From contig JADCFA010000023.1 in the NCBI GenBank assembly GCA_020249775.1, forward strand, positions 186,001 through 250,000: 64,000 nt of DNA. Reading direction: 5' to 3'. How positions within the stretch are numbered: position 1 is the stretch's first letter; each line of letters begins with the position of its first letter. Source of the stretch: Roseomonas sp. Its GTDB lineage: Bacteria; Pseudomonadota; Alphaproteobacteria; Acetobacterales; Acetobacteraceae. The notes beneath the pieces are model-generated. The model did no database searches. It was given only the letters and a program-made list of their open reading frames with translations, and was not told the origin of the DNA. Shown here piece by piece: positions 23,501 to 25,637 of the stretch. The translations under genes were made by a program, and so were the position numbers.

Positions 23501-24193
23501 ATGGATAGCGCGACCGAAGCCAATGCCGGCAGTTTGGATGTGATTTCGGATGCGATCTGCCCCTGGTGCTGGATCGGTAAGCGCAATCTGGATGCGGCTT
23601 TGGAGATGCTTTCGGAGGAGGGGCTGCACTTTAAGGTCCGCTTCCGGCCCTTCCAATTGAACCCAGAAATGCCGGCTGAGGGCGTGGATCGGCGGGAATA
23701 TCGCAGCGCCAAATTCGGCTCACTGGAAAAATCCCAGGAATTGGACCGGCGCGTCGCTGATGCCGGGCGGGTCGCCGGGCTTGAATTCCGCCATGACCTG
23801 ATGGCGCGCACGCCCAATACCTTGGAAGCGCATCGGCTGATTCGGCTGGCGGGTGGGGATGGCCGCCAGCGCGAAGTCGCCGAGGCGATCTTCCAGGCCT
23901 ATTTCCAGGAGGGGCGCGATATTGGCGATATCGCAACACTCGACGCCCTGGGTGTGGCTGCGGGCATGTCAGCGGAAAGCCTGACCGCCTTCAGCGCGGG
24001 GGATGCCGGGCGGCATGAGGTGCTGGCCGAGGATGAGGGCTATCGCCGCGCCGGGATTTCCGGCGTGCCATCCTTTGTGTTGGATCGGCATTTGCTGTTC
24101 TCCGGCGCCATGCCACCTGAGAATATCGCCGATGGGCTGCGCCGAGCGGTCGCTATTTTGCGCGAACGCGCCCGCGATGCCGCGCGGGCGTAG
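23501..24193 (+). CDS. DsbA-family oxidoreductase, FrnE-like
   Basis: This 230-residue thioredoxin-fold protein of the FrnE subfamily (cytoplasmic dithiol/disulfide isomerase-like) has the active site CPWCW near residues 21-25, within SDAICPWCWIGKR. The helical insert contains NTLEAHRLIRLA, and the C-terminal GISGVPSFVLDRHLLFSGA holds the cis-proline of the fold. No signal peptide is present, so it acts in the cytoplasm. The ATG at 23501 has a strong AGAGGAGGAAG ribosome site; longer upstream starts are unsupported. It is read divergently from the serine hydrolase and ends four bases from the convergent small SOS-type gene. Confidence 0.9.
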   Translation: MDSATEANAGSLDVISDAICPWCWIGKRNLDAALEMLSEEGLHFKVRFRPFQLNPEMPAEGVDRREYRSAKFGSLEKSQELDRRVADAGRVAGLEFRHDLMARTPNTLEAHRLIRLAGGDGRQREVAEAIFQAYFQEGRDIGDIATLDALGVAAGMSAESLTAFSAGDAGRHEVLAEDEGYRRAGISGVPSFVLDRHLLFSGAMPPENIADGLRRAVAILRERARDAARA

Positions 24194-24197
24194 GGGG

Positions 24198-24377
24198 TCA
24201 GCCCCCGCTCAGCCAGAGCGCCAGTTCCGCCGCGCCCCAGGCCAGCGCCAGCAAAAGCGTGAAATCGCGCATGGCGCTGCGCGCCTTATCGAAGCCTGCG
24301 CGGTGCGTGCGAAAGCGCACGCGCACCGGGCGTTGCGGGATAATCAGGGAGGGGTCTTGGTAAAGGGTGCTGCTCAT
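24198..24377 (-). CDS. small membrane protein (59 residues) under a LexA-type operator
   Basis: I do not recognise the family. The protein starts MSSTLYQDPSLIIPQRP and continues with a basic region (VRVRFRTHRAG). It ends in one hydrophobic segment (about residues 38-57, FTLLLALAWGAAELALWL) followed by SGG, which suggests a C-terminally anchored inner-membrane protein. There is no Shine-Dalgarno sequence. The inferred promoter places the transcript start within a few bases of the ATG, so a leaderless mRNA is likely. A perfect alphaproteobacterial LexA box lies in that promoter. By analogy with small SOS-induced membrane inhibitors of division (SidA of Caulobacter), a damage-response role is possible, but sequence similarity to them is not evident. 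Confidence 0.65.
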   Translation of the reverse strand: MSSTLYQDPSLIIPQRPVRVRFRTHRAGFDKARSAMRDFTLLLALAWGAAELALWLSGG

Positions 24378-24384
24378 GGTTTGG

Positions 24385-24413
24385 AATAGAACAAAACAAG
24401 AACAATATGGCAA
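24385..24413 (-). promoter_or_regulatory. LexA-repressed promoter (SOS box inside a sigma70 promoter)
   Basis: On the minus strand the order is TTGCCA (-35, 24413-24408), 17 bases, TCTATT (-10, 24390-24385), then seven bases to the ATG at 24377. Inside the spacer and reaching into the -10 element is GTTC-TTGTTTT-GTTC (24403-24389), a perfect match to the alphaproteobacterial LexA consensus GTTC-N7-GTTC. The -35 matches five of six consensus bases and the -10 four of six. Operator placement over the spacer is what LexA repression requires. Confidence 0.8.
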
Positions 24414-24448: not shown

Positions 24449-24991
24449 CTATTGTTTTCCTGATATTTCCGGCGGCGTGGCGGCGCCAGCCCCAAGCGGG
24501 CGCTGCATCAGCACGCTATCCACCCAGCGCCCATGCTTCCATCCCGCTGCCGTGAGCAGCCCCGCCGGGGTGAAGCCTGCACGGCGATGGAGCGCGATGG
24601 AAGCCGCATTGCCGCTATCACCAATCACCGCCACCATTTGCCGAAACCCCGCCGCCGTGCAGCGCGCAATCACTTCTTCCATCAGCGTCAGGCCAATCCC
24701 GCGCTGCCCGGCACCTGGCGCGACATAGACTGAGTTTTCCACGGTGAAGCGATAGGCAGGCCGGGTGCGATAAGCGCTGGCATAGGCATAGCCGAGCACG
24801 CCCTCCCGCGCCTCGGCCACCAGATAGGGAAAGCCGGCGGCCAGCACTGCGTCGCGCCGGCCCGCCAGCTCCGCCGGCTCGGGCGGTTCGATCTCAAAGC
24901 TGGCGAGCCCATGGGTGACCCAATGGGCGTAAATGGCCGTGATGCTCTGGATATCGGCAGGGCTGCTGTCGCGGATCAGGAATTGCTTCAT
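24449..24991 (-). CDS. GNAT family N-acetyltransferase (phosphinothricin-acetyltransferase-like)
   Basis: This 180-residue GNAT enzyme transfers acetyl from acetyl-CoA to a small amine. The N-terminal IRDSSPADIQSITAIYAHWV resembles the phosphinothricin/methionine-sulfoximine acetyltransferase branch, as does FEIEPPEP. The acetyl-CoA loop is in PGAGQRGIGLTLMEEVI, and the GNAASIALHRRAGFTPAG segment is the typical motif B. The true substrate is unknown. Such enzymes in soil bacteria usually modify amino-acid analogues. It ends 71 bases upstream of the small SOS-type gene and is separated from it by that gene's own promoter. Confidence 0.88.
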   Translation of the reverse strand: MKQFLIRDSSPADIQSITAIYAHWVTHGLASFEIEPPEPAELAGRRDAVLAAGFPYLVAEAREGVLGYAYASAYRTRPAYRFTVENSVYVAPGAGQRGIGLTLMEEVIARCTAAGFRQMVAVIGDSGNAASIALHRRAGFTPAGLLTAAGWKHGRWVDSVLMQRPLGAGAATPPEISGKQ

Positions 24992-25124
24992 GGATGGCGC
25001 TTATAGGGGGTGGTTCGAAGATTCACGATTGCCGGGCGTTGCGGCGTGATGCCTTGAGGCAAATTGCTTTATAAGTCATTGGATAGTGCAACCCGTCCGC
25101 CCGGACGCCGGGAAGGAGAGAGCC

Positions 25125-25637
25125 GTGCCACTGCCCCCCGATTCACCCTTGCGCCGCCGCTTGCTGGTGCTGCGCCTGGCGGGCACCGGTGCCGCGCTTC
25201 CTTTGGGTGGCGCGCTGGCGCAGGGCCGCAAATCCCCCGCACCGCCGGAGCCAGATGTGCCGCGCAATAATCGCCCCCCTGCTGAACAACGCCCCAGCGG
25301 TGAGACCGATGCCGATCCCGGCGATGCGCCGGGCAATGGCCGCGGCGCGGCGCGCGGCGCTCCTTCGCTGGAAGCCACGGATGCTGATCCAAGCGATCCG
25401 CCTGGCCGGGGCCGCGCTGGCAATGGCGTGAACGATGCCGATCCTGGCGATATGCCGGGCCGTGGGCGGGGCAATGCGCGGGTGACGGATGCTGACCCAG
25501 GTGATCAGCCTGGCCAGGGCCGGGGCGGTGGCGGCCAGGCGGGGCCGAGCGATGCCGATCCGGGCGACCCCGCGGGGCAGGGGCGCGGCACCGCGCCGCC
25601 GCAGCTCAGGACCGGATTTCCTGCGAAAAAGGCCTAG
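25125..25637 (+). CDS. exported repeat protein with five DADPGD-type repeats
   Basis: This is a 170-residue protein with an N-terminal export signal. LRRRLLVLRL is followed by a hydrophobic stretch ending GGALAQ (residues 9-33); the twin arginines make Tat export possible. The mature part is low-complexity. Five repeats begin at residues 61, 85, 103, 121 and 142, each of the form [TNS]DADP[GS]Dx-PGxGRG, with 18-24 residue spacing. Acidic D-x-D-x-x-D clusters followed by Arg-Gly might bind metal ions, but this is inference. The GTG start follows GGAAGGAGAG. I recognise no family. The gene stands alone between a leftward GNAT gene and the spacer at 25638. Confidence 0.7.
   Translation: MPLPPDSPLRRRLLVLRLAGTGAALPLGGALAQGRKSPAPPEPDVPRNNRPPAEQRPSGETDADPGDAPGNGRGAARGAPSLEATDADPSDPPGRGRAGNGVNDADPGDMPGRGRGNARVTDADPGDQPGQGRGGGGQAGPSDADPGDPAGQGRGTAPPQLRTGFPAKKA
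25305..25610 (+). repeat. in-gene imperfect repeats coding DADPGD units
   Basis: Five imperfect nucleotide repeats with the core GATGCCGATCC(C/G)GGCGA lie inside the exported repeat protein gene. Units three and four are spaced by 54 bases. They keep the reading frame and vary mainly at third codon positions, as expected for selection on the protein rather than recent copying. Confidence 0.75.

What the first reader, a model, noticed from the sequence alone, without database searches (positions are those of the whole stretch)
24198..24413. Perfect alphaproteobacterial LexA operator inside the promoter of an unknown 59-residue membrane protein gene
Seen: GTTC-N7-GTTC without mismatch, lying in a 17-base spacer between TTGCCA and TCTATT, with the ATG seven bases after the -10 and no ribosome site. 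Known: LexA of alphaproteobacteria binds this direct repeat, and SOS-induced small membrane proteins (SidA in Caulobacter) block division. Inference: this is a DNA-damage-induced, leaderless gene for a tail-anchored inner-membrane protein, possibly a division checkpoint or membrane-stress factor that has not been described. It sits alone, not in the imuAB-dnaE2 cassette.
Basis: partly seen in the sequence, partly recalled or inferred. Interest (0 to 1): 0.72.

Follow-up and report, generated by a model that had tools for sequence, protein, structure and literature searches.

The report
DNA-damage-switched tiny membrane protein family
A 59-residue single-helix membrane protein, with a DNA-damage (LexA) switch built into its promoter, belongs to an apparently unnamed family found in many relatives of Roseomonas; by its build it may be a brake on cell division while DNA is repaired, but that has not been tested.

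Summary
A perfect GTTC-N7-GTTC lies at 24389-24403 (-), in the 17-bp spacer of TTGCCA/TCTATT, 11 nt before an ATG (24377) that starts a 59-codon frame. In the window alone the motif is not significant (1 seen, 0.83 expected). Comparison makes it so: of the loci found by protein similarity, all 41 with upstream sequence carry a perfect box 10-11 nt before the ATG, arms invariant while the region upstream drifts. Same-type boxes in this genome sit at lexA, recA, a tentative imuA, uvrA/ssb and a radical-SAM gene. The frame evolves as coding sequence (pN/pS 0.18). A promoter-pattern search of 397 Acetobacteraceae genomes gave 69 hits against 2 for the reversed control; 61 (57 genomes, 14 genera) precede small proteins with one membrane helix near the C terminus; for 7 of those genomes homology is not shown. 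No Pfam, NCBIfam, PHROG or PADLOC family matches the members tested. So: an apparently undescribed SOS-controlled, probably leaderless, tail-anchored microprotein family. Division inhibition like SidA is the best guess, untested. Regulation about 0.93; division role about 0.5.

The parts
24198..24377 (-). gene for a 59-residue protein: ~35-residue N-tail with IPxxP and arginines, then one C-terminal membrane helix with a conserved Glu (E51)
   Evidence: frame; homologues; pN/pS 0.18, changes concentrated at third codon positions; architecture
24389..24403 (-). predicted LexA operator GTTCTTGTTTTGTTC
   Evidence: conserved in 41 of 41 protein-found loci with upstream sequence; same type of box at lexA and recA of this genome
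24408..24413 (-). -35-like TTGCCA; CTTGC is conserved in relatives
   Evidence: consensus gCTTGC over 41 loci
24385..24390 (-). -10-like TCTATT (mostly TCTTAT in the genus), overlapping the box by two bases
   Evidence: not called by the generic scan
24375..24377 (-). ATG, 11 nt after the box and 7 nt after the -10: predicted leaderless start
   Evidence: box-to-ATG distance 11 nt in 25 and 10 nt in 16 of 41 loci
23501..24193 (+). convergent neighbour, DsbA-like (PF01323); ends 4 nt from the stop of the small gene; also beside g53 and g72 members
24449..24991 (-). GNAT acetyltransferase gene upstream on the same strand (found so in only some near-clade loci)

Best explanation
LexA bound in the spacer between -35 and -10 keeps the gene off. 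DNA damage activates RecA, LexA is cleaved, and the promoter fires a transcript that starts at or next to the ATG (leaderless). The 59-residue product inserts by its C-terminal helix into the inner membrane, N-tail in the cytoplasm (positive-inside), with a few residues on the periplasmic side. The conserved helix (W47, E51) binds a membrane partner, most likely in the late divisome (FtsW/FtsI/FtsN), so that septation is held while DNA is repaired; repression returns when LexA is resynthesised. Shown by sequence comparison: the box, its conservation and position, the coding frame, the family and its architecture. Inferred from established LexA biology: induction by damage. Inferred by analogy only: the division target.
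For: Box perfect in 41/41 protein-found loci at 10-11 nt from the ATG; arms 100% identical, N7 92%, -50..-16 only 51%. Of 49 perfect boxes in the own genome, 8 have at least 6/7 A/T in the spacer; these include lexA, recA, tentative imuA, uvrA/ssb and a PA0069-type radical SAM. Promoter pattern: 69 hits against 2 in the reversed control over 397 family genomes, 61 of them before small proteins with one helix near the C terminus. Purifying selection. Acidic residue inside the helix in 73 of 80 distinct members, the 7 exceptions all g41-type; IPxxP in 69 of 80. Extra copies in five relatives carry their own box wherever upstream sequence is present. Literature: SidA, a 29-aa inner-membrane SOS protein, acts on FtsW (PMC4211646, passages); YneA binds FtsW through its TM helix, and low-confidence AF3 models put SidA, SosA and ChiZ on FtsW TM7 (PMC13396833, abstract and Discussion).
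Against: No expression, binding or phenotype data. No profile tested matches the family, and SidA itself was not compared (its sequence was not fetched). Small SOS membrane proteins can have other jobs (TisB-like toxins). Conservation along the helix shows no significant one-face pattern (0.08 of shuffles reach it), so a specific helix-helix interface is not demonstrated. The generic promoter scan did not call the site. The g41-type proteins (7 genomes) lack the helix Glu and IPxxP and are not linked to the rest by profile comparison (probability 6-31%). In 340 of the 397 sampled Acetobacteraceae no member was found with this promoter pattern: the gene is absent there or lies behind a promoter that the pattern misses.
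Confidence: 0.5

Rival explanations
1. LexA-controlled membrane-active peptide that lowers the proton-motive force and causes dormancy, in the manner of TisB of E. coli (mechanism recalled; the title of PMC11575346 in a search listing, calls TisB a dormancy-inducing membrane toxin).
For: Small, with a predicted SOS operator and a single helix holding an acidic residue.
Against: A conserved IPxxP/arginine-containing tail is not needed for a pore; extra copies are kept in some genomes; Rfam gave no RNA family in the window at its gathering scores, though an antisense RNA was not searched for specially.
Confidence: 0.13
2. SOS-induced membrane adaptor or regulator of another envelope process (a protease, a transporter, lipid A export, peptidoglycan synthesis outside division), or a membrane tether for a repair factor through the IPxxP/Arg tail.
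For: I13, P14 and P17 of the tail are near-invariant in the 34 chosen members, so the tail probably binds something; a box before an MsbA-like gene hints that envelope genes may be in this SOS regulon.
Against: Of the four neighbours tested only the DsbA-like gene is widely linked, and it is convergent.
Confidence: 0.25
3. The box is conserved for another reason: it is part of a promoter read by another regulator, and the gene is not in the SOS regulon.
For: The -35, box and -10 are interlocked, so promoter constraint could explain part of the conservation.
Against: The eight GTTC positions are invariant while the N7 in the same spacer varies (84% in the divergent subset); a spacer is not normally conserved base for base; the same repeat marks lexA and recA in this genome.
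Confidence: 0.05
4. Not a gene: chance reading frame near a chance box.
For: Box frequency alone is at chance level in the window.
Against: Homologues in 33 of 35 sampled genomes of the genus, pN/pS 0.18 and 0.34 in two clades, third-position bias, the fixed box in 41/41.
Confidence: 0.01

Closest known systems
SidA of Caulobacter crescentus
   Same: Small LexA-regulated inner-membrane protein of an alphaproteobacterium whose LexA consensus is GTTCN7GTTC (PMC4211646 and PMC12700426, passages)
   Different: SidA has 29 residues; this family has 43-102, mostly with an IPxxP tail and a helix Glu. Sequence relation not tested; function here unknown; whether sidA is leaderless was not found
DidA of Caulobacter
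   Same: 71-aa protein with a single TM helix, damage-induced division inhibitor
   Different: [quoted passage not shown] the window protein has almost no periplasmic part by prediction
YneA (Bacillus), SosA (Staphylococcus), ChiZ (Mycobacterium)
   Same: DNA-damage-induced small single-pass membrane division inhibitors; YneA binds FtsW through its TM helix
   Different: YneA and ChiZ carry a LysM domain outside the membrane, and the extended region of SosA is critical for its toxicity (PMC13396833, abstract and Discussion); here the conserved soluble part is the N-tail, predicted cytoplasmic
TisB of E. coli
   Same: LexA-controlled membrane peptide (recalled)
   Different: Toxin with an antisense RNA and structured leader (recalled); here a probably leaderless gene with a long N-tail

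Membership tests
LexA (SOS) regulon of alphaproteobacteria | GTTCN7GTTC operator in the promoter | tested here: met
LexA (SOS) regulon of alphaproteobacteria | lexA in the same genome, itself with such a box | tested here: met
   lexA at G000:C43:13665 with a perfect box (on the opposite strand) 63 nt upstream of the ATG used
LexA (SOS) regulon of alphaproteobacteria | induced by DNA damage, RecA-dependent, bound by LexA | not testable with these tools
   needs RNA-seq, ChIP or footprinting
Leaderless genes | transcript starts at the start codon, no ribosome site | tested here: inconclusive
   box lies 10-11 nt from the ATG in 41/41 loci, leaving no room for a leader behind the -10; the 5' end was not measured
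SidA-type SOS division inhibitors | small single-pass inner-membrane protein under LexA | tested here: met
   by prediction only: hydropathy and charge, box
SidA-type SOS division inhibitors | blocks septation through FtsW/FtsN | not testable with these tools
   no phenotype or complex data; structure prediction switched off
SidA-type SOS division inhibitors | sequence homology to SidA | not tested
   the SidA sequence was not fetched
Any named family in Pfam, NCBIfam, PHROGs or PADLOC | profile match | tested here: not met
   8 representatives in Pfam (one chance match at E 0.49), the same 8 in NCBIfam, 4 in PHROGs and 4 in PADLOC

The most novel reading that the evidence does not exclude
Many Acetobacteraceae (Roseomonas-like genera) use an undescribed division checkpoint: a leaderless, LexA-gated, tail-anchored microprotein family whose glutamate-bearing helix docks onto FtsW or its complex and whose IPxxP cytoplasmic tail makes a second, conserved contact. 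This would be a checkpoint acting from the cytoplasmic face rather than the periplasmic one, with a protein that evolves fast while its promoter stays almost fixed.
Probability: 0.35. Interest if true: 0.75.

Novelty: new variant of a known kind. Interest (0 to 1): 0.62.

Why it matters
The search listings showed no paper on how Acetobacteraceae stop dividing during DNA damage (open-licence library only, listings by title and abstract start). A promoter-defined set in 57 of 397 sampled genomes (50 without the g41 type) gives a ready candidate. It also shows how a strict operator-to-start arrangement can find fast-evolving microproteins that sequence search misses: the 14-row protein profile found 17 genomes with believable members among 397, the promoter pattern 57.

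Tried and rejected
Chance box: rejected by conservation. The 71-aa TTG-started ORF: it begins inside the -35, and the longer in-frame ATG starts that some relatives show are not shared by all. Mobile or phage gene: the window protein had no tblastn match in the plasmid or phage collections at E 0.01, no PHROG for four members. Class-wide spread: the strict promoter pattern in 385 genomes (5 of them Acetobacteraceae) gave 6 hits besides the own genome; the frames behind them were a UmuD/LexA-like one (L156, label by eye) and short or unrelated ones, none of this family. The 34-row profile in 337 class genomes gave 10 weak matches besides the own genome (one of the ten, G114, in the same family; best E 3.8e-4; 5 of the 10 with stops inside); one of the ten loci holds a perfect box, hundreds of bases from the match. 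Both searches have limited reach. Weak profile matches in the family search (L084-L089 and L091, 7 of 24 genomes) have no perfect box and were set aside; G086 (E 0.007) was kept because it has the box and the DsbA-like neighbour. Helix-face conservation: not significant, 0.08. Profile comparison of subgroups: my first grouping mixed one g41-type and one other sequence into the g120 set and so overstated the g41 link; regrouped by genus the genus set is linked to g120 (93%, E 2.9e-7) and to a set of g61/g49/g88/g84/g115 members (97%, E 1e-10), g41 is not (6-31%), and reversed controls give 0.4-2.8%. Ten of the 80 members (g28, g46, g53, g72, g100, g113) were in no set of that comparison.

Papers: PMC4211646, PMC12700426 and PMC9578287 passages only; PMC13396833 outline, abstract and Discussion; all others search listings only. 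TisB's mechanism, the positive-inside rule and the labels SRAP-like (L135), sigma-like, TetR, MarR, hydrolase and nitroreductase are recalled or by eye.

Full report
What is there. On the minus strand of the window, between a convergent DsbA-like gene (23501-24193, +) and a GNAT acetyltransferase gene (24449-24991, -), lies CTTGCCATATTGTTCTTGTTTTGTTCTATTCCAAACCATG. It contains a -35-like TTGCCA (24413-24408), a 17-base spacer, a -10-like TCTATT (24390-24385), a perfect GTTC-N7-GTTC (24403-24389) and, seven bases after the -10, the ATG (24377) of a 59-codon frame whose stop ends at 24198, four bases from the stop of the DsbA-like gene. There is no ribosome-binding sequence between box and ATG. 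As a single motif the box is worth little: one match in the window with 0.83 expected, 49 in the 4.07-Mb genome, and a generic promoter scan calls nothing.

Is it a gene. A search of 59 genomes found the protein in 33, all in the same genus (33 of its 35 sampled genomes), none in the 24 genomes of other families. Named records, which share contig lengths with these genomes, show that the genus holds Neoroseomonas strains and MAGs labelled Roseomonas. Sequences evolve as coding: in the near clade (18 sequences, 153 pairs) mean pS 0.292 and pN 0.052, in a second clade (the 8 sequences of 59 codons, 28 pairs) 0.377 and 0.129; differences by codon position are 664/414/2008 and 207/238/539. One of the 153 pairs in the near clade had pN at or above pS, none of the 28.

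Is the box real. I took loci found by protein similarity only (the 39 places and three strong distant ones). One (L207) is cut by a contig end. In the other 41 of 41 a perfect box lies 25-26 bases before the ATG that begins the shared N terminus, that is 11 bases (25 loci) or 10 bases (16 loci) between box and ATG. The eight GTTC positions are identical in all 41, the N7 is 92% identical on average, and positions -50 to -16 before the box 51% (in the 18 divergent loci: N7 84%, upstream 46%). In the own genome the perfect boxes with at least six A/T in the spacer are 8 of 49. They lie at lexA, recA, an imuA-like gene, the uvrA/ssb divergent promoter, a PA0069-family radical SAM gene, an MsbA-like ABC transporter, a gene that looks sigma-factor-like, and the gene in question. 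ImuA scored below the NCBIfam cut-off (57.6 against 150 bits), so that name is tentative. A less AT-rich box sits between the ligase-associated exonuclease and a helicase-like frame. Box-to-start distances at seven of these genes are 21-177 bases with the starts I chose; alternative upstream starts would give 18 for lexA and 20 for the radical SAM gene. None of these is as short as the 11 bases here.

How far does it reach. A profile of 14 genus proteins (A1) over 397 Acetobacteraceae genomes matched 24: 13 of the genus, three clear distant ones (G224, G184, G079), one weak but believable (G086) and seven weak ones without a perfect box. Searching instead for the promoter, CTTGC-N5-TGTTC-N7-GTTC, hit 51 of the 397 genomes, with 2 control hits for the reversed pattern; 13 of its 53 hits do not precede such a protein. 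The form CTTG-N7-GTTC-N7-GTTC with an ATG 9-12 bases downstream gave 69 hits in 65 genomes against 2 in the control. Of the 69, 61 (57 genomes, 14 of the 102 sampled genera) begin a protein of 43-102 residues with one hydrophobic helix at or near the C terminus; the other 8 begin long, very short or non-membrane frames. One of the 61 (G028) failed my automatic hydropathy filter but is a plain member by sequence. Because these loci were chosen by their promoter, they say nothing about box conservation; only the 41 protein-found loci do.

The proteins. All fetched loci together give 80 distinct members. They have on average 7.1 K+R and 2.9 D+E before the helix (R 543, K 25 in all), IPxxP in the tail in 69 of 80, and an acidic residue inside the helix in 73 of 80; the 7 without it are all of the g41 type, which also lacks IPxxP. 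In a chosen set of 34 of the 80 (no g41 type) I13, P14, P17, A35, L43 and E51 are the most conserved after M1. Profile comparison by genus links the window's genus with g120 (93%, E 2.9e-7) and with a g61/g49/g88/g84/g115 set (97%, E 1e-10), but not with g41 (6%; 11-31% with the other two sets); reversed controls give 0.4-2.8%. So g41 (7 genomes) shares promoter and build, but homology is not shown; without it the count is 54 hits, 50 genomes, 13 genera. The DsbA-like neighbour is present around all 30 loci L001-L030 and beside g53 and g72 members, which supports descent of the locus; a frame with short repeats near it may be shared with g120, on short matches only. Outside the family neither the strict promoter pattern (385 class genomes, 6 other hits, none of this kind) nor the 34-row profile (337 genomes, 10 weak matches, one of them inside the family) found a member. 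Both could miss forms with another promoter or greater divergence, and each sample held few Acetobacteraceae.

How it probably works. The operator between -35 and -10 means that LexA and RNA polymerase should exclude each other; loss of LexA would fire the promoter, and the transcript would start at the ATG. These are inferences from known LexA biology. The protein should sit N-in, C-out with a few residues in the periplasm (positive-inside rule, recalled). SOS membrane proteins of this size in other bacteria include several division inhibitors: SidA in Caulobacter, 29 residues, acts on FtsW (PMC4211646, passages); YneA binds TM7 of FtsW with its helix, and low-confidence AF3 models place SidA, SosA and ChiZ there too (PMC13396833, Discussion). 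I therefore commit to a division checkpoint acting through a helix contact, at about 0.5. A membrane-depolarising peptide (0.13) or an adaptor for another envelope process (0.25) remain open. The conservation pattern along the helix does not by itself prove a one-sided contact face (0.08 of shuffles reach it).

Known or new. No Pfam or NCBIfam model matched eight representatives beyond one chance-level hit, and no PHROG or PADLOC model matched four. Paper searches for LexA with Acetobacteraceae, Roseomonas, Rhodospirillales and Gluconobacter, for leaderless SOS genes in alphaproteobacteria, and for small SOS membrane proteins listed nothing that by title or abstract start describes such a protein; the library is open-licence only. 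I rate it a new variant of a known kind: an apparently undescribed family that resembles the SidA class in place and regulation but differs in its close, probably leaderless promoter and its conserved tail. Whether it belongs to that functional class has not been tested.

What changed on checking: the g41 link was overstated by a mixed grouping and is withdrawn; the tail motif is IPxxP rather than IPPxP (the window protein reads IPQRP).

Noticed in passing
L208 (G019), L209 (G024), L210 (G033), L211 (G034), L212/L213 (G031): In five near relatives the small gene occurs in two or three copies, each with its own perfect LexA box where the upstream sequence is present; the 2-5 kb between copies hold some or all of genes that look like TetR, alpha/beta hydrolase, nitroreductase and MarR (labels by eye), as if a cassette had entered beside a duplication.
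   Followed up: partly
L066 1469-1483 (G000:C10:235468-235482): Perfect AT-rich box about 70 bases before an MsbA-like ABC transporter gene (box in the reverse orientation), a possible envelope gene in the SOS regulon.
   Followed up: partly
L070 (G000:C24:49560-49574): AT-rich perfect box upstream of a frame that looks sigma-factor-like, with GGGGTGCA-type repeats between.
   Followed up: no
L069 (G000:C26:234-248) and L067 (G000:C12:26084-26098): Perfect boxes at a PA0069-family radical SAM gene and between the ligase-associated exonuclease and a helicase-like frame; both look like SOS members of this genome.
   Followed up: partly
L135 (G136) and L156 (G584): Other frames starting 7-10 bases behind a perfect box: one that looks SRAP/YedK-like (recalled label) and one that looks UmuD/LexA-like, so close box-to-start spacing is not unique to this family.
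   Followed up: no
window 25086-25637 (+): Reading frame with an export-signal-like start and a DADPGDxPGxGR-type repeat; short matches lie near the small gene in g120 genomes.
   Followed up: no
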